From assembly GCA_003279565.1 (NCBI GenBank), contig QCHN01000014.1:1-34793 (forward strand): a DNA stretch of 34,793 bases. Reading direction: 5' to 3'. A program made the position numbers and the translations under genes. The stretch's first letter is position 1. Each line of letters starts with the position of its first letter. The DNA is from Prochlorococcus sp. AG-402-C09. GTDB lineage: Bacteria > Cyanobacteriota > Cyanobacteriia > PCC-6307 > Cyanobiaceae. Positions 1-34,793 of this stretch are shown one piece after another. The notes beneath the pieces are model-generated. The model was not told the origin of the DNA. It was given only the letters and a program-made list of their open reading frames with translations, and ran no database searches.

Positions 1-503
1 TTGTCGTTAGAGTATGCAACACCAACTCCAGCACCAGTTTCGTTACCAGCTAAAGAGTAAGGCATAGCGCCTAGTCTGAAAGCATCTGAGTAAGCAGAAG
101 TTGTTGCAGCAACAACGTCATCCTGATCAACCAAAGGACCAGCAGTTACTTCTAGATCGCCAACTGGGAATGAGTAGAATAATGAGTGAACATTAAGTGC
201 ACCAGATCCTTCTACAGCACTATCCATGCTTGCTAATGGACCACTAGCATTACCAGTTTCAATACCTGCGTAGAAAAGATCTTCGCCAGTGAAGCTAGAA
301 GTTACATCAAGGCCATATGCATACTGCATATAAAGCTCTTCTTCAGTGTCGGCTGTTCCGCCGTCAGAGACAGAACCAACAGTGAAATAAGCACCACCAG
401 AAAGAGAGGTGGTTGATGAGAAGGCAGTGTCAGCATTAACTGCAACAGGAGCCATAAGGCCCAAAGCTGCAGGAGCTACTAATAAACGTTGAAAAAGCTT
501 CAT
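1..503 (-). CDS. Outer-membrane porin, N-terminal part (runs off the left end)
   Basis: The first 167 residues of an outer-membrane beta-barrel protein are present; the rest lies outside the window. The start ATG (501-503) has a GAGG ribosome site five bases upstream. The protein opens with a signal peptide (MKLFQRLLVAPAALG, then a hydrophobic stretch ending near NADTAF). It continues with alternating polar and aromatic short strands rich in Gly, Ser and Thr, as in the porins abundant in Prochlorococcus and marine Synechococcus. No SLH domain follows the signal peptide in the visible part, although many cyanobacterial porins carry one. A Fur-box-like dyad lies about 100 bases upstream, which suggests iron control and a role in iron-stress permeability. 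The family is a confident call; the transported solute is unknown. Confidence 0.75.
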   Translation of the reverse strand, partial: MKLFQRLLVAPAALGLMAPVAVNADTAFSSTTSLSGGAYFTVGSVSDGGTADTEEELYMQYAYGLDVTSSFTGEDLFYAGIETGNASGPLASMDSAVEGSGALNVHSLFYSFPVGDLEVTAGPLVDQDDVVAATTSAYSDAFRLGAMPYSLAGNETGAGVGVAYSND

Positions 504-596
504 AGTGTCCTCACACATAAAGATTATGTATCATATTTTACACTGCTGAAAAAATGAGCGAAAGTAGCACTTGTTACACCTTTCGCGCTGTCATAG

Positions 597-615
597 TAAA
601 ATGATAATCATTTTT
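597..615. promoter_or_regulatory. Fur-box-like iron operator between porin and rsmB
   Basis: Bases 598-614 form a perfect dyad, AAAATGAT-A-ATCATTTT. By my count the 19-base window matches 15 of 19 positions of the classical Fur box GATAATGATAATCATTATC. It sits about 95 bases upstream of the porin start and about 105 upstream of the rsmB start. The porin is the more likely target because outer-membrane porins are commonly iron-regulated, but the site could affect either divergent gene. Confidence 0.6.
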
Positions 616-650
616 ATTTTTGCGGTAGCACAGCCATTTGTTATTACGTT

Positions 651-680
651 TTGACCATTAAAGATTATGCACTTTATTAT
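651..680 (+). promoter_or_regulatory. Candidate sigma-70 promoter for rsmB
   Basis: TTGACC at 651-656 and TATTAT at 675-680 are separated by 18 bases, and the -10 box lies 38 bases before the rsmB start codon. Each hexamer differs from consensus at one position. This is a pattern match in AT-rich DNA. Confidence 0.4.
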
Positions 681-718
681 TGTGATTTAAATCTTTGGTG
701 ACCTAACTATGTTTACCT

Positions 719-2056
719 TTGAGTAAGAATCTTTCATCCATAAAAGGATTAGATGCAAGAAAAGCTGCTTTGGAAGTTATTCAAGCAGTTGGTGGAGGAG
801 CATTTGCAGATGTTGCATTGGATAGAACTTTTAGAGTTTATTCATTTAAGTCGATTGATAAAGCTTTAATAACTGAGCTTTCTTATGGCGCAATTCGTCA
901 AAGATATTTTTTAGATCGCTGGATAGATTTCTTAGGAAAAGTGCCCGCTAAAAAGCAACCTCCGATATTGAGATGGTTATTGCACCTTGGGCTTTATCAA
1001 ATCTTGAAAATGGAGCGAATACCTCCAGCTGCTGCTATCAACACAACCGTCGAGCTTGCAAAAGCTCTTCGTTTGACAAAGCTGGCTCCAGTTGTAAATG
1101 GTATTTTGCGATCGGCTCTTCGAAGTAAAGAAAGAGATCTTTCACTACCTAAATCTAAAAATCCGATTTTAGAATTAGCTAAAAATGAGTCACTACCTCT
1201 TTGGTTGGCAGATGAATTGATTGCTTGGAAGGGAATAGAAGATGCTCATGATGTTGCGCAAGCATTCAACTGTGTTAGTCCAATTGATCTAAGAGTGAAT
1301 AAATTACGTGCAGAAATAAATGATGTAAAAGAAATTTTTGATTCCTTTGGCATTAAAAATCAATTAATTCCAGGTTGTCCATTTGGATTGGAAGTCCTTG
1401 CTGGTTTTGGTGAGCCTAAAAAATGGCCAGGTTATGAAGAAGGAAAATGGAGTGTTCAAGATAGATCTTCACAGCTTATTGCCCCATTATTAGGACCTTT
1501 GCCCGGAGAAAAGATCCTTGACGCTTGTGCTGCTCCAGGTGGTAAATCAACTCATATTGCTGAATTAATCAATAATGATGGCAAAATTTGGTCTGTTGAT
1601 CGATCATCCCGAAGAGCTCAAAAAATATCAGCCAACTCAGAAAGACTTGGGACTCATTGTTTACAATTATTAGTTGCTGACTCTAATGAGTTGTTAGATA
1701 AACATCCTGAATGGAAAGGTTTTTTTGATCGTATATTAATTGATGCCCCATGCTCTGGTTTGGGAACTCTTGCACGTCACCCTGATGCAAGATGGAGAAT
1801 AAACAAAGATAATATCCAGGAGCTTATCTTACTTCAAAGTCAGCTACTAAATTCGTTAGCTCCTTTATTAAAAAGTGGAGGCAAATTGGTCTATTCCACT
1901 TGTACGATTCATCCAGATGAAAATTTTAATCAAATAAAAAAATTTATTCAATTAAAATCTCAATTTTCATTAGAATATGAAAAACAAATTTGGCCGGGAG
2001 AGAAAGATAATGGAGATGGTTTTTATATCGCTGTTTTAAATAAATTTGAAAATTAA
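719..2056 (+). CDS. rsmB: 16S rRNA m5C967 methyltransferase RsmB (Sun/Fmu)
   Basis: SAM-dependent methyltransferase expected to methylate C967 of 16S rRNA. The N-terminal part (about 10-140) is the NusB-like RNA-binding domain. The C-terminal Rossmann domain carries the SAM-binding motif DACAAPGGKSTH at 268-279, the DAPCSG motif with Cys345, and STCT with Cys395. The two cysteines are the release and nucleophile residues of this family. Its 445 residues are normal for RsmB. The start is a TTG at 719: an in-frame stop lies at 704-706 and the ATG at 709 is in another frame. The gene is divergent from the porin and convergent with chlG. An identical inverted copy lies at 32738-34075. Confidence 0.93.
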   Translation: MSKNLSSIKGLDARKAALEVIQAVGGGAFADVALDRTFRVYSFKSIDKALITELSYGAIRQRYFLDRWIDFLGKVPAKKQPPILRWLLHLGLYQILKMERIPPAAAINTTVELAKALRLTKLAPVVNGILRSALRSKERDLSLPKSKNPILELAKNESLPLWLADELIAWKGIEDAHDVAQAFNCVSPIDLRVNKLRAEINDVKEIFDSFGIKNQLIPGCPFGLEVLAGFGEPKKWPGYEEGKWSVQDRSSQLIAPLLGPLPGEKILDACAAPGGKSTHIAELINNDGKIWSVDRSSRRAQKISANSERLGTHCLQLLVADSNELLDKHPEWKGFFDRILIDAPCSGLGTLARHPDARWRINKDNIQELILLQSQLLNSLAPLLKSGGKLVYSTCTIHPDENFNQIKKFIQLKSQFSLEYEKQIWPGEKDNGDGFYIAVLNKFEN

Positions 2057-2135
2057 TAAAACATATATTTATATATAAATCTGCTCTTAAACAGTTTTTT
2101 ATTTATTTATCTAATATTAAAGTTAATAACTTATT

Positions 2136-3086
2136 TTAGAAACTAATTAAAGAACTATGACCAATAGCGATAGCTGTTACAAGCATTCCTAAAATTAGGA
2201 ATGGTTGTGCGCTGGCTTGGTATTTAACATCAAAACTTAATGGATCGCGTAAAAGCCATATGTCTTGAAATGTTATTTGAGGAATTATGAGTAAAACCAG
2301 AATGACAGATGCAAAATGTTGTCCAATCGCTATTAAAACTACTACCATTGCGAGCTGAAAGATATCTATCATTCCTGCGCTAATACGACTTGCATTCTTA
2401 ATACCAAAAACAACAGGGAGTGATTCAAGTCCAAGGCTTCTATCTCCTTCCACGCTTTTAAAATCGTTTATCACAGCTATTCCTAATCCTGACAAGCTGT
2501 AAGCAAGAGTAAGCAGGGCGGTTGTCCAGGTTAAGTGTCCAAAAAGAGCCTGTCCAGCCCACCAAGGAAGAGCTATATAGCTTGCACCGAGAGCATAATT
2601 ACCAAGCCAACCGTTTTGTTTGAGTTTTAACGGTGGTGCTGAGTAAATATAACTTACAAATGACCCTCCCAATGCCAGTAACAGGACTGAAGGAATAGTG
2701 TGATGTGCCCATAAATCCAATAAATAGGCAACACCAAGACCAGCTATTAATAGAACCCATATTTGCAATTTGACTTGAAAAAGAGAAATGGCTCCTGATG
2801 GTATGGGCCTATTAGGTTCATTAATTGCGTCTATTTCTCTATCAAAGTAATCATTGATTGTTTGGGTGTATCCAGTTAAGAGAGGGCCACTCATTATCAT
2901 GCAACTTACTGAAGCAAGTACGTTGCTTAATTCCCAATGGAAATTGCCACTTGCAGCTGCTCCACATATGACTCCCCAGAGCAATGGAATCCATGTGATG
3001 GGCTTCATTAATTGCAAACGAAGCTTCCATATGTTCTTTGTTTCAGAACCTCCTTTTATTCCAAGGAGTTGCCTAGCATCACTCAC
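2136..3086 (-). CDS. chlG: Chlorophyll synthase ChlG (geranylgeranyl/phytyl transferase)
   Basis: Membrane prenyltransferase of the UbiA superfamily that attaches geranylgeranyl or phytyl diphosphate to chlorophyllide, the last step of chlorophyll synthesis, in the thylakoid membrane. The 316-residue protein has the Mg-diphosphate-binding motif NDYFDREID at 78-86 and the expected run of about eight to nine membrane helices. The start is a GTG (3084-3086) beginning MSDARQLLG. It lies 15 bases after the stop of the upstream small DUF2862 gene on the same strand, so the two are probably co-transcribed. It converges with rsmB across a 79-base AT-rich gap. Marine divinyl-chlorophyll organisms use a normal ChlG, so the sequence alone does not show which chlorophyll is made. 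Confidence 0.95.
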   Translation of the reverse strand: MSDARQLLGIKGGSETKNIWKLRLQLMKPITWIPLLWGVICGAAASGNFHWELSNVLASVSCMIMSGPLLTGYTQTINDYFDREIDAINEPNRPIPSGAISLFQVKLQIWVLLIAGLGVAYLLDLWAHHTIPSVLLLALGGSFVSYIYSAPPLKLKQNGWLGNYALGASYIALPWWAGQALFGHLTWTTALLTLAYSLSGLGIAVINDFKSVEGDRSLGLESLPVVFGIKNASRISAGMIDIFQLAMVVVLIAIGQHFASVILVLLIIPQITFQDIWLLRDPLSFDVKYQASAQPFLILGMLVTAIAIGHSSLISF

Positions 3087-3101
3087 TTTTTTATCTCAGG
3101 G

Positions 3102-3323
3102 TTAAGAAACTTCATCTTCGAAGAACCAATGCTTGCTTCCATCATTCATTTTAATTACAACACCAATTCCGCCCCTACCATCAGTCATCTTATAGTCGAT
3201 TACAGTGCCTCTTGGGTCTTCTGATAGTTGGTCTATCAAATAAGAAGGTATGCGATCTCTTACACGTTCAATATTAATTTTAATTTTTGAACCTATCCTT
3301 GAAAGGGAGGTTGGCTTAGCCAT
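3102..3323 (-). CDS. Small cyanobacterial DUF2862 protein
   Basis: A 73-residue soluble protein of the DUF2862 family, function unknown. The body (VGSK/IGSK-type strand, then VRDRIP, TVIDYKMTDGRGGIGVV and HWFFEDEV) looks like a small beta-barrel. I chose the ATG at 3321-3323 (MAKPTSLSRIG) over the upstream GTG at 3348-3350 because the family similarity begins just after it; the longer form would have 82 residues. The gene sits directly ahead of chlG on the same strand and is divergent from hisF with about 50 bases between starts. The pairing with chlG hints at a role around the photosynthetic membrane, but that is inference only. Confidence 0.8.
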   Translation of the reverse strand: MAKPTSLSRIGSKIKINIERVRDRIPSYLIDQLSEDPRGTVIDYKMTDGRGGIGVVIKMNDGSKHWFFEDEVS

Positions 3324-3376
3324 GGAATTAAATGAATTAATTTCGGGCACCTTAACAGTTCCTCTGTTTAAAAATC

Positions 3377-4147
3377 ATGGTTGCTTTAAGATTGATTCCT
3401 TGTCTTGATGTTTCAAACGGACGTGTAGTCAAGGGAGTTAATTTTGTTGGATTGCGTGATGCAGGGGATCCAGTTGAGTTGGGATGTAGATACAGCAAGG
3501 CTGGTGCGGATGAATTGGTCTTTCTTGACATAACAGCTACACACGAAAAAAGATCTACTTTGGTTGAAATGGTTAGACGAACATCTGAAGCTGTAACTAT
3601 TCCTTTTACTGTTGGAGGAGGAATAAGTTCATTGAATGGAATAAATGAATTACTAAGAGCAGGAGCTGACAAAGTAAGTTTAAATTCCAGTGCGGTTAAA
3701 GATCCTTCCTTGATTTCTCAAGGGGCAAATCGTTTTGGATCTCAATGCATTGTGGTTGCAATAGATGCAAAAAAGAACAAAAATATTCCTAATAAGTGGG
3801 ACGTTTATGTGAGTGGTGGACGTAAAAATACTGGTTTAGATGTGATTGAATGGTCGGAAAAAGTATTTCAGCTTGGTGCAGGGGAAATCCTATTAACTTC
3901 CATGGACGGTGATGGGACTCAAAATGGTTATGACATAGAACTTACTAAATCTATTTGTGAGAAAGTTCCAATACCAGTAATAGCATCGGGAGGAGCTGGT
4001 TGTTTGAGACACATTAAAGAGGCTTTTACTCTAGGAAAATCCTCAGCAGCTCTCTTGGCTTCTCTTTTACATGATGGACAATTAACTATCAAAGAAATTA
4101 AAGAATATTTAATTAAAGAAAATCTTCCTATAAGACCTATCGAATGA
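3377..4147 (+). CDS. hisF: Imidazole glycerol phosphate synthase cyclase subunit HisF
   Basis: Cyclase subunit of the HisH-HisF complex. It uses ammonia from HisH to turn PRFAR into imidazole glycerol phosphate and AICAR, joining histidine and purine synthesis. The 256-residue TIM barrel shows the catalytic aspartates Asp11 (IPCLDV) and Asp130 (VVAIDAKK). Phosphate-binding glycine loops appear at VGGGI (79-83) and in the C-terminal ASGGAG. The start ATG gives [11 protein letters not shown], the usual family N-terminus. hisH is not in the window, so his genes are dispersed here, as is common in cyanobacteria. A hairpin follows the stop codon directly. An identical copy lies at 30647-31417. Confidence 0.96.
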
Positions 4148-4180
4148 TTAATATTATCATGAAAACATGTATAATATTAA
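4148..4180 (+). terminator. AT-rich hairpin just after hisF (possible 3'-end structure)
   Basis: The arm TTAATATTATCATG (4148-4161) pairs across an AAAA loop with CATGTATAATATTAA (4166-4180), leaving one unpaired T in the second arm. It begins at the base after the hisF stop codon. No run of T follows, so it is not a textbook intrinsic terminator. It may instead stabilise the hisF 3' end or separate hisF from menG, which starts 47 bases later. Confidence 0.4.
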
Positions 4181-4226
4181 TTATGAGTTAAAGTTTGAAG
4201 GGAGTTAAGTATTTTTCTATATTTAT

Positions 4227-4925
4227 ATGAGGCCTGGCAATACTAAAGCTATAGAGAAAATGTTTAATTCAATTTCTTCAAAATATGATTTACTAAATGA
4301 TATTTTTAGCTTTGGATTGCATAGGTTTTGGAAGAGAAAATTGTTGGATATTCTTAATCCCACTTTTGGGGAAAAATGGATAGATCTTTGTTGTGGTACT
4401 GGAGATATGTCAATACTTTTGGCTAGATATATGAAAAGTTCAAAAAATATTACTGGGATAGACTCAGCTTCTCAAGCATTATTAGTTGCAAGAGAAAGAT
4501 CCAAACAAAAATATTCTTCAATTGAATGGATAAAGGGTGATGCTCTACAAACTAATCTCACATCAGATAAATTTGATGGCCTTTTGATGTCCTATGGTTT
4601 AAGGAATCTTTCTAGTTCTTATGAAGGACTTAGAGAGGCTTTTAGAATTTTGAAACCAGGTGGAAGAGCAGGAATCTTGGATTTTAGATCTTTTGAAGTA
4701 GGCTCAATTCAAGGGCTTTTCCAAAAAATTTATCTAAGTCTTTATGTGGTCCCAATTGCATCACTGTTCGGCTTAGGGCAGGAATATTCATATATAAAAA
4801 AAAGTTTAGTTAATTTCCCTTCCGGGGCAAAACAAGTTCATTTGGCACTTTCTGCCGGCTTCAAGAAAGCAGAATATCAAACATTAGCAAAAGGACAAAT
4901 GGGGATTTTATTGCTTGAAGCCTAG
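4227..4925 (+). CDS. menG: Demethylphylloquinol methyltransferase MenG (UbiE family)
   Basis: Class I SAM methyltransferase of the UbiE/MenG family, 232 residues. In cyanobacteria this enzyme C-methylates 2-phytyl-1,4-naphthoquinol, the last step of phylloquinone (photosystem I A1 cofactor) synthesis. Visible marks are the N-terminal MFNSISSKYDLLND, the SAM-binding motif WIDLCCGTGD at 51-60, and LLMSYGLRNL with LKPGGRAGILDF further on. The ATG at 4227 is the first usable start after an in-frame stop at 4206-4208. There is no well-placed ribosome site; GGGAG lies more than 20 bases upstream. The gene is downstream of hisF on the same strand and convergent with the DUF721 gene 19 bases away. 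Confidence 0.92.
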   Translation: MRPGNTKAIEKMFNSISSKYDLLNDIFSFGLHRFWKRKLLDILNPTFGEKWIDLCCGTGDMSILLARYMKSSKNITGIDSASQALLVARERSKQKYSSIEWIKGDALQTNLTSDKFDGLLMSYGLRNLSSSYEGLREAFRILKPGGRAGILDFRSFEVGSIQGLFQKIYLSLYVVPIASLFGLGQEYSYIKKSLVNFPSGAKQVHLALSAGFKKAEYQTLAKGQMGILLLEA

Positions 4926-4944
4926 GTTAAATATCTCAATTTAT

Positions 4945-5418
4945 TTACAATTCTTTTCTTCTGCAAAAACTACATTTACTCCATAATGTAATTTCTCCCG
5001 TAGGTGAGGGGATTTTGCATAGAGGACACTTGGTTATTCCATTTTTATCAGTTCTACTTGGGTGATTTTCCCAAATTTCTTTTTCAGTTTCTCTTGTGAC
5101 TAAAGCATTTGGATAATGTTGCCTGATTCTGATCTCTTTTATTTGATATCCATATGATTTTAAAGATTCAATTAACTCCAAACGGTTATATAAAAGCGCC
5201 TGTCTCCATTGAGGATGGCTTGCTCCAATAGTTAGAACTTTATTCTGAATGTTAAGTGGTGTGCAATTTAATGCGAGTTGCTCGCCAGCTATTTCTACCC
5301 AGTCTTGAATAAGGCCTCCTACATTTCCTTTCCATGTGGACTTGATTTCTTCTAGGCATGTATATATTGATTTCTCTCTTTTTGCTTTTGTTATATGCTT
5401 TAAGTCATTTAAAATCAA
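4945..5418 (-). CDS. DUF721/DciA-like protein with C-terminal zinc-ribbon motif
   Basis: A 157-residue protein. Residues about 18-100 resemble the DUF721/DciA family, whose bacterial members act as ancestral loaders of the replicative helicase DnaB. Support includes the core IQDWVEIAGEQLAL, LNIQNKVLTI, and HPQWRQALLYNRLELI. The C-terminus has two Cys pairs, CPLC (131-134) and CSFC (149-152), which could bind zinc. Whether the cyanobacterial version loads DnaB cannot be told from sequence. The gene is divergent from pspA. The inverted-repeat boundary at 5386 falls in codon 11, so the first 10 codons exist only here. This copy is intact. Confidence 0.75.
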   Translation of the reverse strand: MILNDLKHITKAKREKSIYTCLEEIKSTWKGNVGGLIQDWVEIAGEQLALNCTPLNIQNKVLTIGASHPQWRQALLYNRLELIESLKSYGYQIKEIRIRQHYPNALVTRETEKEIWENHPSRTDKNGITKCPLCKIPSPTGEITLWSKCSFCRRKEL

Positions 5419-5491
5419 TTTAAATTAGACACCAATGATGAGTTAGTGCTTAAATCTAGCTAATATTTTTTAGATTGCATAAAAGATCCTA

Positions 5492-6268
5492 ATGGGATTA
5501 TTAGATAGGTTAAGTCGCTTACTTAGGGCAAATCTAAATGCTTTTGTCAGTGAAGCAGAAGATCCAATAAAAATACTTGATCAGTCTGTTGCTGATATGC
5601 AAGAAGACTTGGTGAAGCTCCGTCAAGCTGTAGCTATTGCCATCGCAAGTCAAAAAAGATTAGAGAATCAGGCTAATCAAGCGAAAGAGCAAATTCAAAA
5701 TTGGTTTTCCAGAGCTGAATTAGCCTTAAAAAAAGGAGAGGACGATTTAGCCAGAGAAGCACTAAGTAGAAAAAAAACTTTTCAGGAAACTTTTCAATCT
5801 TTAACAACTCAATTTCAAACACAAAATGGTCAAGTTGAAAAACTAAAAAAAAGTCTTTTGTTATTAGAAAGAAAGATCTCTGAGGCTCGAACCAAAAAAG
5901 ATATGCTTAAAGCAAGAGCTCAGGCAGCTAAAGCTCAGCAAAAAATTCAAAGTGCAGTTGGTGATTTGGGTGGAAAGTCTGCGATGGCTGCATTTGAAAG
6001 GATGGAAGATAAAGTAGAGGCATTGGAAGCTTCGGGGCAAGCAGCCTTAGAGTTGGCTGGCGAAGATCTAGAAAGTAAGTTTGCAGCATTAGAAGGAAGT
6101 AATGATATAGAAAAAGAATTAGAGACATTGAGGAGTCAATTAAAATCAGGTGTTGAAGCAATAGCTTTGCCTCCGTCAGATTTAGAGGTTAATGAAGTAA
6201 AGACTGTAGAAATCCAAGAAGTCGAAGTTGAATTAGAGGAAATGAAAAAGTCAATGGATAATTCTTGA
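5492..6268 (+). CDS. pspA: PspA/IM30 family protein (Vipp1-like)
   Basis: Membrane-associated ESCRT-III-like protein of the PspA/Vipp1 family, 258 residues. In cyanobacteria Vipp1 is needed for thylakoid upkeep. The N-terminal amphipathic helix (MGLLDRLSRLLRANLNAFV) and the EDPIKILDQSV motif at about 23-33 are typical. A long predicted coiled coil rich in Gln, Lys and Glu spans about 30-215. The last 40 residues form an acidic Glu/Val-rich tail (VKTVEIQEVEVELEEMKK), which might stand in for the C-terminal helix of Vipp1. Whether it is orthologous to Vipp1 or to PspA is not settled by eye. It is followed by birA on the same strand 29 bases later. Confidence 0.9.
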   Translation: MGLLDRLSRLLRANLNAFVSEAEDPIKILDQSVADMQEDLVKLRQAVAIAIASQKRLENQANQAKEQIQNWFSRAELALKKGEDDLAREALSRKKTFQETFQSLTTQFQTQNGQVEKLKKSLLLLERKISEARTKKDMLKARAQAAKAQQKIQSAVGDLGGKSAMAAFERMEDKVEALEASGQAALELAGEDLESKFAALEGSNDIEKELETLRSQLKSGVEAIALPPSDLEVNEVKTVEIQEVEVELEEMKKSMDNS

Positions 6269-6297
6269 TTTTTATAAGAACACAAGACTTTTGAAGC

Positions 6298-7056
6298 ATG
6301 AATAATCAAAAACTCTATAGAGGTGTAGGTTTGATTTCTAGATATCACAAATTAAATCATTCCTGTTCAAGATCTTGGCAATTAATGTTTAAGCCTATTT
6401 GTGCTAGCACAGAAATAGAGCTAACAAATTGGATTGCAGAGAACCCAGTAAGAAAAAATCAGCCAAAAGCAATGTTTGCCTCTTGCCAAAGATATGGTCA
6501 AGGTCAAGCTGGGCGGATTTGGCAGGCTCCAAAAGGAGGGGTTTGGGTTAGTGCAGCAATTAAGAGAGAAGATCAGTGTAAAAATAATTCTCAGCTTTAC
6601 GGGTTAGCGGTTGCGTTATCTTTGGCTGAGAAAATTGAACCGATGGGAGTTAATGTCAAAATAAAATGGCCAAATGATCTATTAGTTGATGGTCAAAAAT
6701 TAGCGGGAATTTTACCTAGATTAATTTTTAGAGGTGAAAAACTTAGATTATTAAGAGTTGGAATAGGTTTAAATGTCTTCAATAATGTTCCCAAGGAGGG
6801 AATTTCACTAAAACAAATTGTTGGAGATAAAAAGATGAATATAAATTTTTGGTCCTCAGAAGTTTTACATGCAATAGAGAGATCTTTAGATTTTTTGGAC
6901 AATATAAATCTTCTATGCAGTCAAATTGAAGAAAGATTGTGGTCAAAAAAATACATTGATAAAGACACTGGCAATCAATGGGATATCAAAGGTATCGACT
7001 CCAATGGCAGATTAATTATTTTTAAAGAAGATAAAAAGAAAGTTTTGTCTACTTAA
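6298..7056 (+). CDS. birA: Biotin-[acetyl-CoA carboxylase] ligase
   Basis: Biotin protein ligase that makes biotinyl-AMP and transfers biotin to the AccB carrier of acetyl-CoA carboxylase. The 252-residue protein has no N-terminal helix-turn-helix, so it is a ligase without repressor function. Visible motifs are the nucleotide/biotin loop RYGQGQAGRIW (65-75), KWPNDLLV (123-130) and KLAGIL (134-139) with the biotin-contacting Lys134. The loop departs from the usual GRGRRGR pattern, with Gln at the first two Arg positions and Ala at the third. The C-terminal domain is short. The first 25 or so residues are not clearly family-like, so a later start is possible. Confidence 0.88.
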   Translation: MNNQKLYRGVGLISRYHKLNHSCSRSWQLMFKPICASTEIELTNWIAENPVRKNQPKAMFASCQRYGQGQAGRIWQAPKGGVWVSAAIKREDQCKNNSQLYGLAVALSLAEKIEPMGVNVKIKWPNDLLVDGQKLAGILPRLIFRGEKLRLLRVGIGLNVFNNVPKEGISLKQIVGDKKMNINFWSSEVLHAIERSLDFLDNINLLCSQIEERLWSKKYIDKDTGNQWDIKGIDSNGRLIIFKEDKKKVLST

Positions 7057-7071
7057 TTATGATTGTTTAGC

Positions 7072-7797
7072 TTAATTATAAGTAATCTCTGTCACCTTAC
7101 CATCTCTAAATCTTGCTATTTTTTTTGCTCTCTGAGCGACATTATCTTCATGAGTAACTAAGACAATCGTTATTCCTTGACTATGAAGTTGGTCAAAAAG
7201 ATTTAAAACATCTTCAGTAGTTTTTGAATCCAAAGCACCAGTTGGTTCGTCTGCTAATAACAATGAAGGCTGATTGATTATTGCTCTTGCTATGGCAACT
7301 CGTTGTTGTTGTCCTCCAGATAATTGATTAGGCAGATTGGTCATCCTGTTCCCAAGCCCAACTCGAGAAAGAGCCTCTTCAGCGCGCTTCTTTCTTTCTA
7401 TAGAAGGAACGCATGCATAAATCATTGGAAGCATTACATTCTCAAGTGCTGAAACTTCTTGAAGCAAGTGGAATTGCTGAAAAACGAAACCAAGTTCTTT
7501 GTTTCTAATATCTGCTAGCAAGTCATCATCAAGCTTTTCTACTGCAGTCCCATTCAATTCATACGTCCCATTCGTAGGACGGTCAAGACATCCAAGTATA
7601 TTCATTGCAGTACTTTTACCAGAGCCACTTGCACCCATCACGGCAAGGTAATCGCCCTGGGAAACCTCAAGGTTTAGTTCGTCAAGAGCTTTTACTTTGA
7701 CTGAGCCTTCGCCATAAAATTTATTTACATTGGTTAGACGAGCTACAGATGTTTTCAATGATTTTAATTGGTTAGCCAATTGAACTTTTACTTGCAA
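7072..7797 (-). CDS. ABC transporter ATPase of the LolD/MacB/DevA type
   Basis: ATP-binding subunit, 241 residues. It has a Walker [10 protein letters not shown] at 55-63, Q-loop VFQQFHLL, signature [14 protein letters not shown], Walker [13 protein letters not shown] and H-loop VTHE. The FQQFHLL and LSGGQQQR sequences are typical of the MacB/LolD/DevA branch, which powers export of lipoproteins, glycolipids or small molecules through MacB-like permeases. No such permease or membrane-fusion gene lies nearby, so the partner is encoded elsewhere. The longest frame starts at a TTG (7795-7797) and overlaps the 3' end of ndhB by 26 bases. TTG codons at residues 7 and 14 are alternative starts, and the family alignment begins near residue 19. 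Confidence 0.88.
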
Positions 7798-26459: not shown

Positions 26460-26531
26460 ATAAGTGGGGAAAGCCGAATCGTAACTCACAAATTATTCCC
26501 AATTTTTGCAGAAGGTAGTTAGTGTCAACAT

Positions 26532-26708: not shown

Positions 26709-26715
26709 TATTTGC

Positions 26716-27468
26716 TCAACTCATAACCATACCACCATCAACTTGAATTGTCTGACCAGTTATGTAAGCAGCAGATGGATCTGCTGCTAGAAATCTCACT
26801 GCTCCTGCAACATCCTCAGGGTTGCCAAATCGTCCAAGCGGAATAGCAGAAAGGATTGATTCACTGTTCAGATCTTTTGTCATATCCGTTGAAATAAAAC
26901 CTGGAGCAACTGCATTGACAGTAATCCCTCTGCTTGCAAATTCTTTTGCGGCACTTTGTGTAAAACCTATTACTCCAGCTTTTGCTGCAGAATAATTTGC
27001 TTGGCCTGGGTTACCCATCAAGCCAACTACAGAAGTTATGTTGATAATTCTCCCTTTTTTTTGTTTCAGCATCTGCCTAGAGACTGCTCTTGTACAATAA
27101 AAAACACCATTCAAGTTAAGGTCTACGACTTTCTGCCAATCGTCTGTTTTCATTCTCATTAAAAGACCATCTTTAGTTATCCCTGCGTTGTTGACCAGAA
27201 CATCGATTTTATTATTTTTATCCAATACGGTTTTTATTAATTCATTTACCGAATTTTCATTAGAGATATCAGCTTGAAGAGGGTATGCCTTACCTCCAAA
27301 GGAACTTATTTCTGAAACGACCTTATTTGCATTCTCCAAAGACGAAGAATAATTGATGATTACTTCTGCTCCTTCCTTTGCTAAAAAAATTGCAATAGCC
27401 TTGCCAATTCCTCTACTAGCTCCAGTTACAATTGCAGTCTGACCTTCAAGTAATTTTGCTGATGTCAT
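26716..27468 (-). CDS. fabG: 3-oxoacyl-[ACP] reductase FabG
   Basis: NADPH-dependent reductase of the fatty acid elongation cycle, 250 residues of the short-chain dehydrogenase fold. The cofactor motif is TGASRGIG at 15-22 and the NNAG motif is at 93-96. The catalytic residues are Asn118, Ser146 (ITSVVG), Tyr159 and Lys163 (YSAAK). The C-terminal VDGGM is typical. The start ATG is at 27466-27468. The gene is divergent from ispD across 156 bases that contain several dyads. Confidence 0.96.
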   Translation of the reverse strand: MTSAKLLEGQTAIVTGASRGIGKAIAIFLAKEGAEVIINYSSSLENANKVVSEISSFGGKAYPLQADISNENSVNELIKTVLDKNNKIDVLVNNAGITKDGLLMRMKTDDWQKVVDLNLNGVFYCTRAVSRQMLKQKKGRIINITSVVGLMGNPGQANYSAAKAGVIGFTQSAAKEFASRGITVNAVAPGFISTDMTKDLNSESILSAIPLGRFGNPEDVAGAVRFLAADPSAAYITGQTIQVDGGMVMS

Positions 27469-27533
27469 AATTTAATGATTTTAAATCGTTAGATCGAATA
27501 CTTAATTTATTTAACTTACTATTGAGCCACTTG

Positions 27534-27582
27534 CTTTTTAAAAAGACTTTAAGTCAGACAGTAAAAATAGTTATTTTTACTG
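27534..27582. promoter_or_regulatory. Cluster of three dyads between fabG and ispD
   Basis: Three perfect palindromes lie within 49 bases: CTTTTTAAAAAG at 27534-27545, GACTT-T-AAGTC at 27545-27555, and CAGTAAAAAT-agtt-ATTTTTACTG at 27559-27582. They are in the divergent intergenic region, 43 bases or more before the ispD start and 66 bases or more before the fabG start, so they could be operators or leader hairpins rather than terminators. Confidence 0.4.
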
Positions 27583-27624
27583 GTCGAATATATTAAGCGA
27601 ATAATCAATAGAGAGGGATCAGTT

Positions 27625-28302
27625 GTGCATTTGTTAATTGCTGCTGCAGGAAGTGGAAGTCGAATGGGTGCTGATAGAAATAAACTCCTTTTGACAGTTG
27701 CAGGAAAGACTGTTTTAGAGTGGACTTTGAAAGCAGCTTTCGACTCTAAAACAATTACTTGGATTGGAATTATTGGACAACCGAAAGACAAAAACTCCAT
27801 ATGTTCAATTTTTGATGATTCAGTAAAGTCAGTTCAATGGATCAATGGGGGATCAACAAGACAGCAGTCAGTTCGGCTGGGATTAGCGGCCCTTCCAATT
27901 GATGCTAAGTCTGTGCTGATTCATGATGGAGCAAGATGTTTGGTAAGATCAAACGTTTTTGACGACATTTCACAGATTGTTTCTGAGGGGCAAGCTGTTA
28001 TTGCTGCGTCACAAGTAACAGATACCATTAAAAAGGTCGATAAAGATGGTGAGATTATTGAGAGCCCACCTCGTTCAGATCTATGGTCTGCTCAGACACC
28101 TCAGGGCTTCCCCGTAAATAAACTGAAGTATGCTCATAGTGAAGCAATCGCTAAAGGATGGAATGTGACCGATGATGCATCCTTATTTGAACGATTGGGA
28201 TTACCAGTAAAAATTTATGATGCTGGGCCTTCAAATATTAAAGTGACAACTCCATTTGATCTCGTAATTGCAGAGTCTTTATTGTCTATTGTAAAAGACT
28301 AA
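27625..28302 (+). CDS. ispD: 2-C-methyl-D-erythritol 4-phosphate cytidylyltransferase
   Basis: Third enzyme of the MEP isoprenoid pathway, which supplies precursors for phytyl, carotenoid and quinone side chains. The 225-residue protein starts at GTG 27625 ([15 protein letters not shown]). It has the CTP-binding loop with Arg13 and Lys20, [11 protein letters not shown], the HDGARCLV motif, [11 protein letters not shown] and the C-terminal [10 protein letters not shown] followed by [10 protein letters not shown]. Its last 17 bases overlap the 3' end of the convergent peptidase gene. Confidence 0.96.
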
Positions 28303-29161
28303 GACTCCCTGTGTCGCCATTTAAGATAGCTTGACTACCAAGAGGGAGTGATGCGTTCCCACAACAGTGTCCAATGGGCAGATTTGAAATAATTGGAATT
28401 TTAAGGTCTTGTGTTCGATCTTTGAAAATATCAAGAAGATCAAACGTCTTTGTTTTATCGACGTCTTTCTCGTTATCACAGTAAGTAAAAGAGCCAAAGC
28501 CTAAGCCAGCTAGCTGTTGTAGAATTCCAGCCAATCTTAAGTGAGTTAACATTCTGTCAATTCTGTAGGGAGCTTCTCCAATATCTTCGAGTATTAAAAT
28601 TGATTTTTTAAAATTTGGTAGATGTTGAGTGCCAATTAAGTGAGTCAGTACAGTGAGGTTGCCAACTATTAGATGCCCCTTTGCGATGCCGCCTCCCCAT
28701 GGGTCTCCATAAATATCCGGTACAAGATTTCCAAACAAGATTGATTTAAGTCTGTCTTTGCTCCAGTCTGGCTCGCCCCCCAAAGTCGTAACGAGTGGAC
28801 CATGAACTCCTCCCTGAAATCCACCTGCGAGTCGTGCAAGAAGTATGGAAGTTAAATCAGAGAAGCCAACCATCCAGCCTTCTTTCCATGGTTGTCTTTT
28901 TTCAAGTAATCTCGCCGATCCCCAACCACCTCTTGCAAATGCCAATAGGGGATAATGACTGTTTGAGTGTAATTCATTAAATCTAACTTCATCATTGCCT
29001 GCCAAATAGCCCCAAGATCTATCTTCTGCATAGATATGGTTGCATATTAACCCCCACTCCTGAAGGACTTTTATGCCCGATTTGAGATCTTCTTTTTTAC
29101 TTATTGGCGAACTTGCTGCAACTATGTGGAAAAGATCACCTTTTTTTAGCGACTTAGTCAT
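28286..29161 (-). CDS. LD-carboxypeptidase family protein (S66, LdcA-like)
   Basis: A 291-residue protein of peptidase family S66, which removes the terminal D-alanine from muropeptide tetrapeptides during peptidoglycan recycling. The probable catalytic triad is Ser101 (VGFSDLTS), Glu192 ([17 protein letters not shown]) and His265 (IGHCCGN). [11 protein letters not shown] near residue 77 is the family nucleophile-approach motif. It has no signal peptide, which fits a cytoplasmic enzyme. It is preceded 25 bases upstream by the ubiA 3' end on the same strand, probably in one operon, and overlaps ispD by 17 bases tail to tail. Confidence 0.9.
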
Positions 29162-29186
29162 TTGCGAAATTTGCTAAAATCATTGA

Positions 29187-29407
29187 TTAAACAAGTTTGC
29201 TCAATACCATGCCAAGAAGTAATAAACTGCCTAATCGGACTTGATTGCTGAAATGCAAACCTGAAGTTTCAATACCTTTTGATCTTGAATTTAATAAGAG
29301 AACCTCTCTTTGCATTGATAAAGTCGAGATCAACCAAAAAGGCCAATACGTTAATCCTAAATTTGCTTGGAAAGCAGCAACAGCTAGAAAAAAACAGGTT
29401 AAAAAGT
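29187..29407 (-). pseudogene. ubiA: ubiA (4-hydroxybenzoate prenyltransferase), C-terminal fragment cut at the repeat junction
   Basis: On the minus strand an open frame runs from the junction at 29407 to the TAA at 29187-29189 and encodes the last 72 residues of a membrane protein. The fragment (FLAVAAFQANLGLTYWPFWL, then MQREVLLLNS, HFSNQVRLGSLLLLGMVLS) matches the end of UbiA: helix, GL-x-YW segment, Arg-rich turn, F-x-N-x-V-x-L-G, helix. In cyanobacteria UbiA starts plastoquinone synthesis by prenylating 4-hydroxybenzoate. The other three quarters of the gene are missing because the sequence switches to the inverted copy. The truncation probably belongs to the assembly rather than the organism. 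Confidence 0.8.
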
Positions 29408-29849
29408 AGCAAAAAGAGAGAAATCAATATATACATGCCTAGAAGAAATCAAGTCCACATGGAAAGGAAATGTAGGAGGCCTTATTCAAGACTGGGTAGA
29501 AATAGCTGGCGAGCAACTCGCATTAAATTGCACACCACTTAACATTCAGAATAAAGTTCTAACTATTGGAGCAAGCCATCCTCAATGGAGACAGGCGCTT
29601 TTATATAACCGTTTGGAGTTAATTGAATCTTTAAAATCATATGGATATCAAATAAAAGAGATCAGAATCAGGCAACATTATCCAAATGCTTTAGTCACAA
29701 GAGAAACTGAAAAAGAAATTTGGGAAAATCACCCAAGTAGAACTGATAAAAATGGAATAACCAAGTGTCCTCTATGCAAAATCCCCTCACCTACGGGAGA
29801 AATTACATTATGGAGTAAATGTAGTTTTTGCAGAAGAAAAGAATTGTAA
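29408..29849 (+). pseudogene. DUF721/DciA-like gene, 5'-truncated copy
   Basis: Codons 12-157 of the gene at 4945-5418 are present in frame from 29409, including both Cys pairs, but the first 10 codons and the start are replaced by ubiA sequence. An in-frame TAA at 29400-29402 closes the frame upstream, so no fusion with ubiA results. Confidence 0.9.
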
Positions 29850-29868
29850 ATAAATTGAGATATTTAAC

Positions 29869-30567
29869 CTAGGCTTCAAGCAATAAAATCCCCATTTGTC
29901 CTTTTGCTAATGTTTGATATTCTGCTTTCTTGAAGCCGGCAGAAAGTGCCAAATGAACTTGTTTTGCCCCGGAAGGGAAATTAACTAAACTTTTTTTTAT
30001 ATATGAATATTCCTGCCCTAAGCCGAACAGTGATGCAATTGGGACCACATAAAGACTTAGATAAATTTTTTGGAAAAGCCCTTGAATTGAGCCTACTTCA
30101 AAAGATCTAAAATCCAAGATTCCTGCTCTTCCACCTGGTTTCAAAATTCTAAAAGCCTCTCTAAGTCCTTCATAAGAACTAGAAAGATTCCTTAAACCAT
30201 AGGACATCAAAAGGCCATCAAATTTATCTGATGTGAGATTAGTTTGTAGAGCATCACCCTTTATCCATTCAATTGAAGAATATTTTTGTTTGGATCTTTC
30301 TCTTGCAACTAATAATGCTTGAGAAGCTGAGTCTATCCCAGTAATATTTTTTGAACTTTTCATATATCTAGCCAAAAGTATTGACATATCTCCAGTACCA
30401 CAACAAAGATCTATCCATTTTTCCCCAAAAGTGGGATTAAGAATATCCAACAATTTTCTCTTCCAAAACCTATGCAATCCAAAGCTAAAAATATCATTTA
30501 GTAAATCATATTTTGAAGAAATTGAATTAAACATTTTCTCTATAGCTTTAGTATTGCCAGGCCTCAT
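29869..30567 (-). CDS. menG: MenG, inverted duplicate copy
   Basis: The 232-residue product is identical to that of 4227-4925, with the same start and SAM motif. It lies entirely inside the right arm, so its existence as a separate gene in the genome is doubtful. Confidence 0.85.
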   Translation of the reverse strand: MRPGNTKAIEKMFNSISSKYDLLNDIFSFGLHRFWKRKLLDILNPTFGEKWIDLCCGTGDMSILLARYMKSSKNITGIDSASQALLVARERSKQKYSSIEWIKGDALQTNLTSDKFDGLLMSYGLRNLSSSYEGLREAFRILKPGGRAGILDFRSFEVGSIQGLFQKIYLSLYVVPIASLFGLGQEYSYIKKSLVNFPSGAKQVHLALSAGFKKAEYQTLAKGQMGILLLEA

Positions 30568-30613
30568 ATAAATATAGAAAAATACTTAACTCCCTTCAAA
30601 CTTTAACTCATAA

Positions 30614-30646
30614 TTAATATTATACATGTTTTCATGATAATATTAA
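30614..30646 (-). terminator. hisF 3' hairpin, inverted duplicate copy
   Basis: Mirror of the AT-rich hairpin at 4148-4180, directly after the stop of the duplicate hisF. Confidence 0.38.
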
Positions 30647-31417
30647 TCATTCGATAGGTCTTATAGGAAGATTTTCTTTAATTAAATATTCTTTAATTTC
30701 TTTGATAGTTAATTGTCCATCATGTAAAAGAGAAGCCAAGAGAGCTGCTGAGGATTTTCCTAGAGTAAAAGCCTCTTTAATGTGTCTCAAACAACCAGCT
30801 CCTCCCGATGCTATTACTGGTATTGGAACTTTCTCACAAATAGATTTAGTAAGTTCTATGTCATAACCATTTTGAGTCCCATCACCGTCCATGGAAGTTA
30901 ATAGGATTTCCCCTGCACCAAGCTGAAATACTTTTTCCGACCATTCAATCACATCTAAACCAGTATTTTTACGTCCACCACTCACATAAACGTCCCACTT
31001 ATTAGGAATATTTTTGTTCTTTTTTGCATCTATTGCAACCACAATGCATTGAGATCCAAAACGATTTGCCCCTTGAGAAATCAAGGAAGGATCTTTAACC
31101 GCACTGGAATTTAAACTTACTTTGTCAGCTCCTGCTCTTAGTAATTCATTTATTCCATTCAATGAACTTATTCCTCCTCCAACAGTAAAAGGAATAGTTA
31201 CAGCTTCAGATGTTCGTCTAACCATTTCAACCAAAGTAGATCTTTTTTCGTGTGTAGCTGTTATGTCAAGAAAGACCAATTCATCCGCACCAGCCTTGCT
31301 GTATCTACATCCCAACTCAACTGGATCCCCTGCATCACGCAATCCAACAAAATTAACTCCCTTGACTACACGTCCGTTTGAAACATCAAGACAAGGAATC
31401 AATCTTAAAGCAACCAT
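30647..31417 (-). CDS. hisF: HisF, inverted duplicate copy
   Basis: Product identical to that of 3377-4147 (256 residues, Asp11 and Asp130 present). Complete within the right arm. Probably not a true second hisF. Confidence 0.87.
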
Positions 31418-31470
31418 GATTTTTAAACAGAGGAACTGTTAAGGTGCCCGAAATTAATTCATTTAATTCC

Positions 31471-31692
31471 ATGGCTAAGCCAACCTCCCTTTCAAGGATA
31501 GGTTCAAAAATTAAAATTAATATTGAACGTGTAAGAGATCGCATACCTTCTTATTTGATAGACCAACTATCAGAAGACCCAAGAGGCACTGTAATCGACT
31601 ATAAGATGACTGATGGTAGGGGCGGAATTGGTGTTGTAATTAAAATGAATGATGGAAGCAAGCATTGGTTCTTCGAAGATGAAGTTTCTTAA
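31471..31692 (+). CDS. DUF2862 protein, inverted duplicate copy
   Basis: The 73-residue product is identical to that of 3102-3323, and the same ATG choice applies. It precedes the duplicate chlG by 15 bases. Confidence 0.75.
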   Translation: MAKPTSLSRIGSKIKINIERVRDRIPSYLIDQLSEDPRGTVIDYKMTDGRGGIGVVIKMNDGSKHWFFEDEVS

Positions 31693-31707
31693 CCCTGAGA
31701 TAAAAAA

Positions 31708-32658
31708 GTGAGTGATGCTAGGCAACTCCTTGGAATAAAAGGAGGTTCTGAAACAAAGAACATATGGAAGCTTCGTTTGCAATTAATGAAGCCCATCACA
31801 TGGATTCCATTGCTCTGGGGAGTCATATGTGGAGCAGCTGCAAGTGGCAATTTCCATTGGGAATTAAGCAACGTACTTGCTTCAGTAAGTTGCATGATAA
31901 TGAGTGGCCCTCTCTTAACTGGATACACCCAAACAATCAATGATTACTTTGATAGAGAAATAGACGCAATTAATGAACCTAATAGGCCCATACCATCAGG
32001 AGCCATTTCTCTTTTTCAAGTCAAATTGCAAATATGGGTTCTATTAATAGCTGGTCTTGGTGTTGCCTATTTATTGGATTTATGGGCACATCACACTATT
32101 CCTTCAGTCCTGTTACTGGCATTGGGAGGGTCATTTGTAAGTTATATTTACTCAGCACCACCGTTAAAACTCAAACAAAACGGTTGGCTTGGTAATTATG
32201 CTCTCGGTGCAAGCTATATAGCTCTTCCTTGGTGGGCTGGACAGGCTCTTTTTGGACACTTAACCTGGACAACCGCCCTGCTTACTCTTGCTTACAGCTT
32301 GTCAGGATTAGGAATAGCTGTGATAAACGATTTTAAAAGCGTGGAAGGAGATAGAAGCCTTGGACTTGAATCACTCCCTGTTGTTTTTGGTATTAAGAAT
32401 GCAAGTCGTATTAGCGCAGGAATGATAGATATCTTTCAGCTCGCAATGGTAGTAGTTTTAATAGCGATTGGACAACATTTTGCATCTGTCATTCTGGTTT
32501 TACTCATAATTCCTCAAATAACATTTCAAGACATATGGCTTTTACGCGATCCATTAAGTTTTGATGTTAAATACCAAGCCAGCGCACAACCATTCCTAAT
32601 TTTAGGAATGCTTGTAACAGCTATCGCTATTGGTCATAGTTCTTTAATTAGTTTCTAA
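31708..32658 (+). CDS. chlG: ChlG, inverted duplicate copy
   Basis: The 316-residue product is identical to that of 2136-3086, with a GTG start and the NDYFDREID motif. Complete within the right arm. A second identical chlG would be unexpected in a streamlined genome. Confidence 0.87.
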   Translation: MSDARQLLGIKGGSETKNIWKLRLQLMKPITWIPLLWGVICGAAASGNFHWELSNVLASVSCMIMSGPLLTGYTQTINDYFDREIDAINEPNRPIPSGAISLFQVKLQIWVLLIAGLGVAYLLDLWAHHTIPSVLLLALGGSFVSYIYSAPPLKLKQNGWLGNYALGASYIALPWWAGQALFGHLTWTTALLTLAYSLSGLGIAVINDFKSVEGDRSLGLESLPVVFGIKNASRISAGMIDIFQLAMVVVLIAIGQHFASVILVLLIIPQITFQDIWLLRDPLSFDVKYQASAQPFLILGMLVTAIAIGHSSLISF

Positions 32659-32737
32659 AATAAGTTATTAACTTTAATATTAGATAAATAAATAAAAAAC
32701 TGTTTAAGAGCAGATTTATATATAAATATATGTTTTA

Positions 32738-34075
32738 TTAATTTTCAAATTTATTTAAAACAGCGATATAAAAACCATCTCCATTATCTTTCTCTCCCGG
32801 CCAAATTTGTTTTTCATATTCTAATGAAAATTGAGATTTTAATTGAATAAATTTTTTTATTTGATTAAAATTTTCATCTGGATGAATCGTACAAGTGGAA
32901 TAGACCAATTTGCCTCCACTTTTTAATAAAGGAGCTAACGAATTTAGTAGCTGACTTTGAAGTAAGATAAGCTCCTGGATATTATCTTTGTTTATTCTCC
33001 ATCTTGCATCAGGGTGACGTGCAAGAGTTCCCAAACCAGAGCATGGGGCATCAATTAATATACGATCAAAAAAACCTTTCCATTCAGGATGTTTATCTAA
33101 CAACTCATTAGAGTCAGCAACTAATAATTGTAAACAATGAGTCCCAAGTCTTTCTGAGTTGGCTGATATTTTTTGAGCTCTTCGGGATGATCGATCAACA
33201 GACCAAATTTTGCCATCATTATTGATTAATTCAGCAATATGAGTTGATTTACCACCTGGAGCAGCACAAGCGTCAAGGATCTTTTCTCCGGGCAAAGGTC
33301 CTAATAATGGGGCAATAAGCTGTGAAGATCTATCTTGAACACTCCATTTTCCTTCTTCATAACCTGGCCATTTTTTAGGCTCACCAAAACCAGCAAGGAC
33401 TTCCAATCCAAATGGACAACCTGGAATTAATTGATTTTTAATGCCAAAGGAATCAAAAATTTCTTTTACATCATTTATTTCTGCACGTAATTTATTCACT
33501 CTTAGATCAATTGGACTAACACAGTTGAATGCTTGCGCAACATCATGAGCATCTTCTATTCCCTTCCAAGCAATCAATTCATCTGCCAACCAAAGAGGTA
33601 GTGACTCATTTTTAGCTAATTCTAAAATCGGATTTTTAGATTTAGGTAGTGAAAGATCTCTTTCTTTACTTCGAAGAGCCGATCGCAAAATACCATTTAC
33701 AACTGGAGCCAGCTTTGTCAAACGAAGAGCTTTTGCAAGCTCGACGGTTGTGTTGATAGCAGCAGCTGGAGGTATTCGCTCCATTTTCAAGATTTGATAA
33801 AGCCCAAGGTGCAATAACCATCTCAATATCGGAGGTTGCTTTTTAGCGGGCACTTTTCCTAAGAAATCTATCCAGCGATCTAAAAAATATCTTTGACGAA
33901 TTGCGCCATAAGAAAGCTCAGTTATTAAAGCTTTATCAATCGACTTAAATGAATAAACTCTAAAAGTTCTATCCAATGCAACATCTGCAAATGCTCCTCC
34001 ACCAACTGCTTGAATAACTTCCAAAGCAGCTTTTCTTGCATCTAATCCTTTTATGGATGAAAGATTCTTACTCAA
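32738..34075 (-). CDS. rsmB: RsmB, inverted duplicate copy
   Basis: The 445-residue product is identical to that of 719-2056, with a TTG start and all catalytic motifs. Complete within the right arm. Confidence 0.86.
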   Translation of the reverse strand: MSKNLSSIKGLDARKAALEVIQAVGGGAFADVALDRTFRVYSFKSIDKALITELSYGAIRQRYFLDRWIDFLGKVPAKKQPPILRWLLHLGLYQILKMERIPPAAAINTTVELAKALRLTKLAPVVNGILRSALRSKERDLSLPKSKNPILELAKNESLPLWLADELIAWKGIEDAHDVAQAFNCVSPIDLRVNKLRAEINDVKEIFDSFGIKNQLIPGCPFGLEVLAGFGEPKKWPGYEEGKWSVQDRSSQLIAPLLGPLPGEKILDACAAPGGKSTHIAELINNDGKIWSVDRSSRRAQKISANSERLGTHCLQLLVADSNELLDKHPEWKGFFDRILIDAPCSGLGTLARHPDARWRINKDNIQELILLQSQLLNSLAPLLKSGGKLVYSTCTIHPDENFNQIKKFIQLKSQFSLEYEKQIWPGEKDNGDGFYIAVLNKFEN

Positions 34076-34113
34076 AGGTAAACATAGTTAGGTCACCAAA
34101 GATTTAAATCACA

Positions 34114-34143
34114 ATAATAAAGTGCATAATCTTTAATGGTCAA
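34114..34143 (-). promoter_or_regulatory. Candidate rsmB promoter, inverted duplicate copy
   Basis: Mirror of 651-680: TTGACC and TATTAT with an 18-base spacer on the minus strand. Confidence 0.38.
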
Positions 34144-34178
34144 AACGTAATAACAAATGGCTGTGCTACCGCAAAAAT

Positions 34179-34197
34179 AAAAATGATTATCATTTTA
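34179..34197. promoter_or_regulatory. Fur-box-like operator, inverted duplicate copy
   Basis: Mirror of 597-615, containing the perfect 17-base dyad at 34180-34196. It lies about 95 bases before the porin ATG at 34291. Confidence 0.58.
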
Positions 34198-34290
34198 CTA
34201 TGACAGCGCGAAAGGTGTAACAAGTGCTACTTTCGCTCATTTTTTCAGCAGTGTAAAATATGATACATAATCTTTATGTGTGAGGACACT

Positions 34291-34793
34291 ATGAAGCTTT
34301 TTCAACGTTTATTAGTAGCTCCTGCAGCTTTGGGCCTTATGGCTCCTGTTGCAGTTAATGCTGACACTGCCTTCTCATCAACCACCTCTCTTTCTGGTGG
34401 TGCTTATTTCACTGTTGGTTCTGTCTCTGACGGCGGAACAGCCGACACTGAAGAAGAGCTTTATATGCAGTATGCATATGGCCTTGATGTAACTTCTAGC
34501 TTCACTGGCGAAGATCTTTTCTACGCAGGTATTGAAACTGGTAATGCTAGTGGTCCATTAGCAAGCATGGATAGTGCTGTAGAAGGATCTGGTGCACTTA
34601 ATGTTCACTCATTATTCTACTCATTCCCAGTTGGCGATCTAGAAGTAACTGCTGGTCCTTTGGTTGATCAGGATGACGTTGTTGCTGCAACAACTTCTGC
34701 TTACTCAGATGCTTTCAGACTAGGCGCTATGCCTTACTCTTTAGCTGGTAACGAAACTGGTGCTGGAGTTGGTGTTGCATACTCTAACGACAA
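34291..34793 (+). CDS. Outer-membrane porin, N-terminal part, inverted duplicate copy (runs off the right end)
   Basis: Identical to the fragment at 1-503 read in the other direction: 167 residues with a signal peptide and a GAGG ribosome site (34282-34285). It stops at the window end at exactly the same base as the left copy. Confidence 0.74.
   Translation, partial: MKLFQRLLVAPAALGLMAPVAVNADTAFSSTTSLSGGAYFTVGSVSDGGTADTEEELYMQYAYGLDVTSSFTGEDLFYAGIETGNASGPLASMDSAVEGSGALNVHSLFYSFPVGDLEVTAGPLVDQDDVVAATTSAYSDAFRLGAMPYSLAGNETGAGVGVAYSND

What the first reader, a model, noticed from the sequence alone, without database searches (positions are those of the whole stretch)
1..34793. Window is a giant hairpin: 5386-base perfect inverted repeat flanking a 24-kb loop
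Base i is complementary to base 34794-i for the first and last 5386 bases, including six genes and non-coding gaps with no difference that I could find. A true ancient duplication would show silent changes. A recent real duplication, a hairpin amplification chimera (typical of multiple displacement amplification) or an assembly foldback all fit. Given the broken genes at one junction, artefact is most likely. If it is real, it would be a rare large inverted duplication in a streamlined genome.
Basis: partly seen in the sequence, partly recalled or inferred. Interest (0 to 1): 0.75.

Follow-up and report, generated by a model that had tools for sequence, protein, structure and literature searches.

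The report
Fold-back chimera in cyanobacterial assembly
The giant hairpin is almost certainly not in the cell: it looks like a DNA-copying error joined to the true sequence at a 10-letter match, right where the draft genome of this marine cyanobacterium has a gap.

Summary
Bases 1-5386 equal the reverse complement of 29408-34793 with 0 mismatches, and the window is one whole contig (C14) of a Prochlorococcus-like draft (34 contigs, 1.63 Mb, listed 88.7% complete).

Left arm and loop are native: they run in order along the best-matching relative. The right arm is not. Of 40 other genomes of the genus, none spans the 29407/29408 joint and 36 carry arm-side sequence, each in one place. In relatives the loop's right end continues into a UbiA-family gene, cut here to about 73-77 codons, then ppx, lgt, petA, petC and tatC. 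That stretch, about 17 kb, was not found in the readable assembly, which resumes at base 1 of contig C8. petA is in 17 of 17 relatives at least 90% complete, so this is an assembly gap.

At the joint the native sequence, read from relatives, shares 10 nt (AGCAAAAAGA) with the inverted site 24 kb away, the published signature of inverted amplification chimeras, though their sites usually lie under 10 kb apart. Both contig ends stop at the same base, so the right arm has no sequence of its own.

Verdict: amplification chimera kept in the assembly. No reads were available.

The parts
1..5386 (+). Left arm, native copy: porin start, RsmB, UbiA-family prenyltransferase, PF11061 protein, HisF, UbiE/MenG, DciA (all but its first codons)
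   Evidence: Matches, in order with the loop, the same place in G027 and six single-contig relatives; gene content by Pfam
5387..29407 (+). Loop, native single-copy sequence (PspA/IM30, biotin/lipoate ligase family, ABC transporters, proton-antiporter family NDH subunit, topoisomerase, lumazine-binding protein, COX1-3, CtaA, UbiA-family, Cpn60, short-chain dehydrogenase, IspD, LD-carboxypeptidase)
   Evidence: Window 709-24397 and 24775-29417 align in order to G027 contig C4 at 90-91%, with 24320-24762 at 78% between them; Pfam
29190..29407 (-). Last part (about 73 codons, 77 with the bases matching past the joint) of a UbiA-family prenyltransferase gene, cut by the false joint
   Evidence: Protein match residues 220-296 at C14:29190-29420, 84%; the only other match in the assembly is a 26% paralogue at 21335-22009; relatives carry about 296 aa there
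29408..29417 (+). Microhomology AGCAAAAAGA: present in the native right-hand sequence of relatives and, inverted, at window 5377-5386
   Evidence: All 7 fetched relatives' right-end matches run to 29417; the 10-mer is on the native right side in 6 of 7 and, of 5 relatives whose left site was printed, on the inverted side in 3; G027 shares exactly 10 nt; rate of 10 nt or more at random inverted pairs 1.9e-5
29408..34793 (-). Right arm, second copy of 1-5386 with no independent sequence; artefact, with DciA copy lacking its first codons
   Evidence: 0 differences from the left arm; no second arm place and no spanning match in 40 other genus genomes

Best explanation
During whole-genome amplification of one cell, a growing strand that had copied the chromosome up to window 29417 was displaced. 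Its 3' end (...AGCAAAAAGA) annealed to the complementary TCTTTTTGCT at 5377-5386 on a displaced strand, and it was extended back toward base 1. (The reverse direction gives the same joint.) Correct molecules covering the next 17 kb were rare or absent, so the short-read assembler followed the chimeric reads and walked through the left-arm sequence a second time, backwards, to the same dead end at base 1. The sequence facts and the missing native flank are shown. The single-cell amplification and the assembler path are inferred.
For: One arm copy at the native left position in all six single-contig relatives. 0 of 40 other genus genomes span the joint. In G027 the loop's right end continues into UbiA/Ppx/Lgt/PetA/PetC/TatC (similar ORF layout in G032), not found in this assembly apart from two short matches of 48 and 56 bases elsewhere. 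The assembly resumes at C8 base 1, about 17.4 kb further on. petA is in 17 of 17 relatives at least 90% complete. 10-nt inverted microhomology. Both contig ends stop at one base, and the native left neighbour C4 ends about 0.6 kb away. MDA chimeras: 406 of 475 (85%) inverted, complementarity of 2-21 nt common. Prochlorococcus single-cell MDA: about 1 chimera per 10 kb and 7 chimeric contigs in each of two libraries (passages).
Against: The two joined sites lie 24 kb apart. In E. coli MDA only 69 of 406 inverted chimeras joined sites more than 10 kb apart, and only 34.8% of those showed complementarity. No other contig of this assembly shows a hairpin between its first and last 2 kb, 0 of 28 readable others; fold-backs inside contigs were not looked for. 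That the genome is a single amplified genome is inferred, not read from a record. No reads were available.
Confidence: 0.95

Rival explanations
1. A real, very recent inverted duplication in this cell or its population: replication template switching at the 10-nt inverted repeat produced a tandem-inverted-duplication or fold-back amplification.
For: Zero differences and a short inverted-repeat joint are also what such events give; inverted amplification by a replication-based model is described elsewhere (PMC4689423, search listing and start of abstract only).
Against: A real interstitial duplication keeps the native continuation, but the right flank was not found in the readable assembly. A terminal fold-back would remove petA, which is in 17 of 17 near-complete relatives. 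No readable contig supplies a second outer flank. None of 40 relatives has it.
Confidence: 0.03
2. Pure assembler or scaffolder error with no chimeric molecule behind it, a wrong walk in the assembly graph.
For: Both arms end at the same base, as expected when one graph edge is used twice.
Against: The shared sequence at the joint is only 10 nt in the best-matching relative, shorter than usual short-read assembly words (recalled: 21 or more), and the window holds no N. So reads with the joint most likely existed.
Confidence: 0.02

Closest known systems
Inverted chimeras of multiple displacement amplification (Lasken and Stockwell 2007, PMC1855051; abstract and Results section read)
   Same: Two segments of one chromosome joined in inverted orientation, with short complementarity (10 nt, inside the reported 2-21 nt) at the joint
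   Different: 24 kb between joined sites, where most reported are under 10 kb; seen here as an assembled contig, not as reads
Chimeric contigs in Prochlorococcus single-cell assemblies (PLoS One 2009, PMC2731171; passages read)
   Same: Non-adjacent regions of a Prochlorococcus chromosome joined in one contig; the paper says annotation may reveal such contigs
   Different: Those were checked against the MED4 reference; here the reference is the gene order of relatives
Plastid-style or organelle inverted repeats (recalled)
   Same: Large identical inverted repeat around a single-copy loop
   Different: Not seen in any of 40 relatives; one joint breaks a gene; no tRNA and no Rfam match in the window

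Membership tests
MDA inverted chimera | Two native segments joined in inverted orientation | tested here: met
MDA inverted chimera | Short complementarity at the joint (2-21 nt reported) | tested here: met
   10 nt, judged from relatives because the native flank is missing here
MDA inverted chimera | Joined sites usually under 10 kb apart | tested here: not met
   24 kb apart; a usual tendency (337 of 406 inverted chimeras), not a requirement
MDA inverted chimera | DNA was amplified with phi29 polymerase | tested here: inconclusive
   34 contigs, none under 2,000 bases, and relatives with single-cell style titles fit the pipeline of PMC6122165, which kept only contigs over 2,000 bp (passages); the genome's own record is unnamed
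MDA inverted chimera | Absent from unamplified DNA | not testable with these tools
   No reads or DNA available
Real segmental inverted duplication | Second copy has its own outer flank | tested here: not met
   The end 90 bases occur only at the two ends of C14, besides matches of 14 and 15 bases; the smallest contigs C30-C34 read as N and could not be checked
Real segmental inverted duplication | Native sequence still present beyond the breakpoint | tested here: not met
   About 17.4 kb beyond the breakpoint not found in the readable assembly, with the same C30-C34 caveat
Real segmental inverted duplication | Arm depth about twice loop depth | not testable with these tools
   No reads available

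The most novel reading that the evidence does not exclude
A genuine large inverted duplication, formed by template switching at a 10-nt inverted repeat, existed in this one Prochlorococcus-like cell, and the missing right flank is an unrelated coverage gap that happens to begin at the same base.
Probability: 0.03. Interest if true: 0.5.

Novelty: not a real feature. Interest (0 to 1): 0.06.

Why it matters
As biology it does not matter. As data quality it does: 5,386 bases and about six genes are counted twice, a UbiA-family gene looks truncated, and a false gene order sits in a draft genome. A simple test (first bases of a contig equal to the reverse complement of its last bases) would flag such contigs.

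Tried and rejected
PhiX174 spike-in or phage origin was rejected: the arm length equals phiX174's 5,386 (recalled), but the arm encodes chromosomal genes also found in relatives, and the phage search gave only two weak matches of 182 bases (presence of phiX174 in that collection not checked).

Organelle-like conserved inverted repeat was rejected: none of 40 relatives has a second arm place, and no tRNA or Rfam match lies in the window.

Other hairpin contigs in this assembly: none among the 28 other contigs with readable ends, first against last 2 kb. C30-C34 read as N and were left. The same-strand matches of C28 and C29 are only my overlapping stretches; the other rows not involving C14 were short matches of 23 to 81 bases.

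A porin repeat as the cause of the contig break at base 1 was considered. Only C14 matched that part of the relative's DNA (a divergent copy would be missed), so a repeat is not shown. By their coordinates, contigs of at least six other genomes (G017, G020, G026, G027, G028, G029) also begin within about 0.7 kb of the same place; the cause was not determined.

Limits of the empty answers: searches scored 40 of 90 and 40 of 124 candidates; L035 10866-11001 was not searched; C30-C34 (11.8 kb together) read N when fetched and may not have been searchable. Even all of that could not hold the whole 17.4-kb stretch.

One paper search (terms on inverted repeats and chimeric contigs in single amplified genomes) listed no paper on this contig among the 10 of 89 shown; it gave PMC13265396, of which I read the abstract.

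Full report
Observation. The window is the whole of contig C14 of a draft genome of 34 contigs and 1,626,188 bases, listed at 88.72% completeness. Bases 1-5386 are the exact reverse complement of 29408-34793, with no mismatch or gap; the match stops at 5387. The loop is 24,021 bases.

What the DNA is. Arm and loop genes are those of a marine picocyanobacterium. By an arm protein (RsmB), 15 loci were found in the named genome collection: 13 titled Prochlorococcus sp., one uncultured Prochlorococcus sp., and one distant Nitrospirae MAG; records very near the window's own may be left out of that list. The best-matching relative, G027, has a contig of 122,655 bases, the same length as QCIZ01000004.1, Prochlorococcus sp. 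AG-402-O21; that they are the same record is my inference. The loop holds ordinary genes: 18 of 22 loop reading frames tested have a Pfam match and 4 have none at the limits used.

Which arm is native. Window 709-29417 runs in order along G027 contig C4 at 90-91% identity, apart from a 78% patch at 24320-24762, and 77-523 matches the contig's start at 95%. The right arm matches G027 only at the left-arm place, backwards. The six single-contig relatives (G002, G010, G019, G025, G032, G033) each hold one arm match and one loop-end match in the same relative order, 24 kb apart in four, 28 kb in G025 and 40 kb in G019. A 2,001-base probe across the joint was searched in the 41 genomes of the genus held, this one included. 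Of the 40 others, 36 have arm-side matches (several of them partial), each in one place; 2 have only the loop side; 2 have neither; and none spans the joint. Five rows begin 17 nt and one 7 nt before it, as short overhangs.

What should follow 29407. In G027 the loop's right end continues without a break into a 296-aa UbiA-family prenyltransferase gene, then Ppx/GppA, Lgt, cytochrome f (PetA), Rieske protein (PetC) and TatC, among others; G032 has a similar ORF layout. In this assembly only the end of the UbiA gene remains, residues 220-296, matching to 29420; the only other match is a 26% paralogue in the loop. The next 8.5 kb gave one 48-base match in C5 (E 1.5e-4), and PetA gave none. Of the following 20 kb of G027, the first 8.8 kb gave one 56-base match in C7 (E 5.4e-5), and then the sequence resumes at base 1 of contig C8, at G027 C4 position 46,788, about 17.4 kb beyond the joint. 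PetA is found in 35 of the 40 other genomes and in 17 of 17 that are at least 90% complete. The UbiA protein is found in 34 of 40, one of them only by a weak 24% match, and in 16 of the same 17. So the joint sits at the edge of an assembly gap. Contigs C30-C34 (11.8 kb together) read as N when fetched, and I cannot say what they hold.

The other ends. Both ends of the contig stop at the same base inside a porin-like gene (the relative G032's full gene scores just under the PF13609 cut-off, 26.5 against 27). The native neighbour on that side is C4, whose last base lies about 0.6 kb away by comparison with G032. The end 90 bases occur nowhere else in the readable assembly beyond matches of 14 and 15 bases. 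The right arm therefore carries no base of its own and no second flank.

The joint. The right-end matches of all 7 relatives fetched run to 29417, ten bases past the joint. The 10-mer AGCAAAAAGA is on the native right side in 6 of these 7 (not G032). On the inverted left side, printed for 5 of the 7, it is in 3 (G027, G033, G002) and altered in G032 and G010. In G027 the two sides share exactly 10 nt; the 10-mer occurs there once forward (29331) and once inverted (5262) in 29.3 kb, which holds 1,176 inverted 10-mer pairs of any kind. Two million random inverted position pairs in 38 kb of G027 gave a shared stretch of 10 or more at a rate of 1.9e-5. The length is judged from relatives, since this genome's own native flank is missing.

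Mechanism. In the abstract and Results section that I read, Lasken and Stockwell report 475 mapped MDA chimeras from one E. coli cell: 85% inverted, 76.8% with at least 2 and up to 21 complementary bases at the joint, inverted ones mostly under 10 kb apart. Passages of PMC2731171 give about one chimera per 10 kb and seven chimeric contigs in each of two Prochlorococcus single-cell libraries; passages of PMC2668756 give one per 13-27 kb in other marine single cells. Passages of PMC6122165, a Prochlorococcus single-cell genome set, describe MDA or WGA-X, SPAdes in single-cell mode, only contigs over 2,000 bp kept, and 1.5 misassemblies per 100 kb in benchmarks. The abstract of PMC13265396 reports palindromic reads as an MDA artefact. 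The smallest contig here is 2,023 bases. All of this fits a chimera that stayed in the assembly because correct molecules were missing beyond the joint.

Against. The 24-kb spacing is in the rarer class (69 of 406 inverted chimeras were over 10 kb, with complementarity in 34.8% of these). No other readable contig of this assembly is a hairpin end to end (0 of 28). The single-cell origin is inferred. No reads were available, so depth and spanning reads remain untested. Perfect identity does not separate a new duplication from an artefact.

Verdict. Real pattern in the file, not a real feature of the genome: confidence 0.95.

Noticed in passing
window 24320-24762: A patch 78% identical to the best-matching relative, inside a contig otherwise 90-91% identical; it covers the end of the 159-aa ORF 24192-24671, which had no Pfam match at E 1e-10.
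   Followed up: no
G000 contigs C4, C14, C8: By comparison with relatives the native order is C4, gap of about 0.6 kb, C14 1-29417, gap of about 17.4 kb, C8.
   Followed up: yes
L036 3394-4007 and window 1-518: Contigs of at least six other genomes of the genus begin within about 0.7 kb of this porin-like gene's place (G017, G020, G026, G027, G028, G029; coordinates); G027 C4 begins within the gene.
   Followed up: partly
window 1-5386: The arm length, 5,386, equals the phiX174 genome length (recalled); a coincidence, since the arm is chromosomal.
   Followed up: yes
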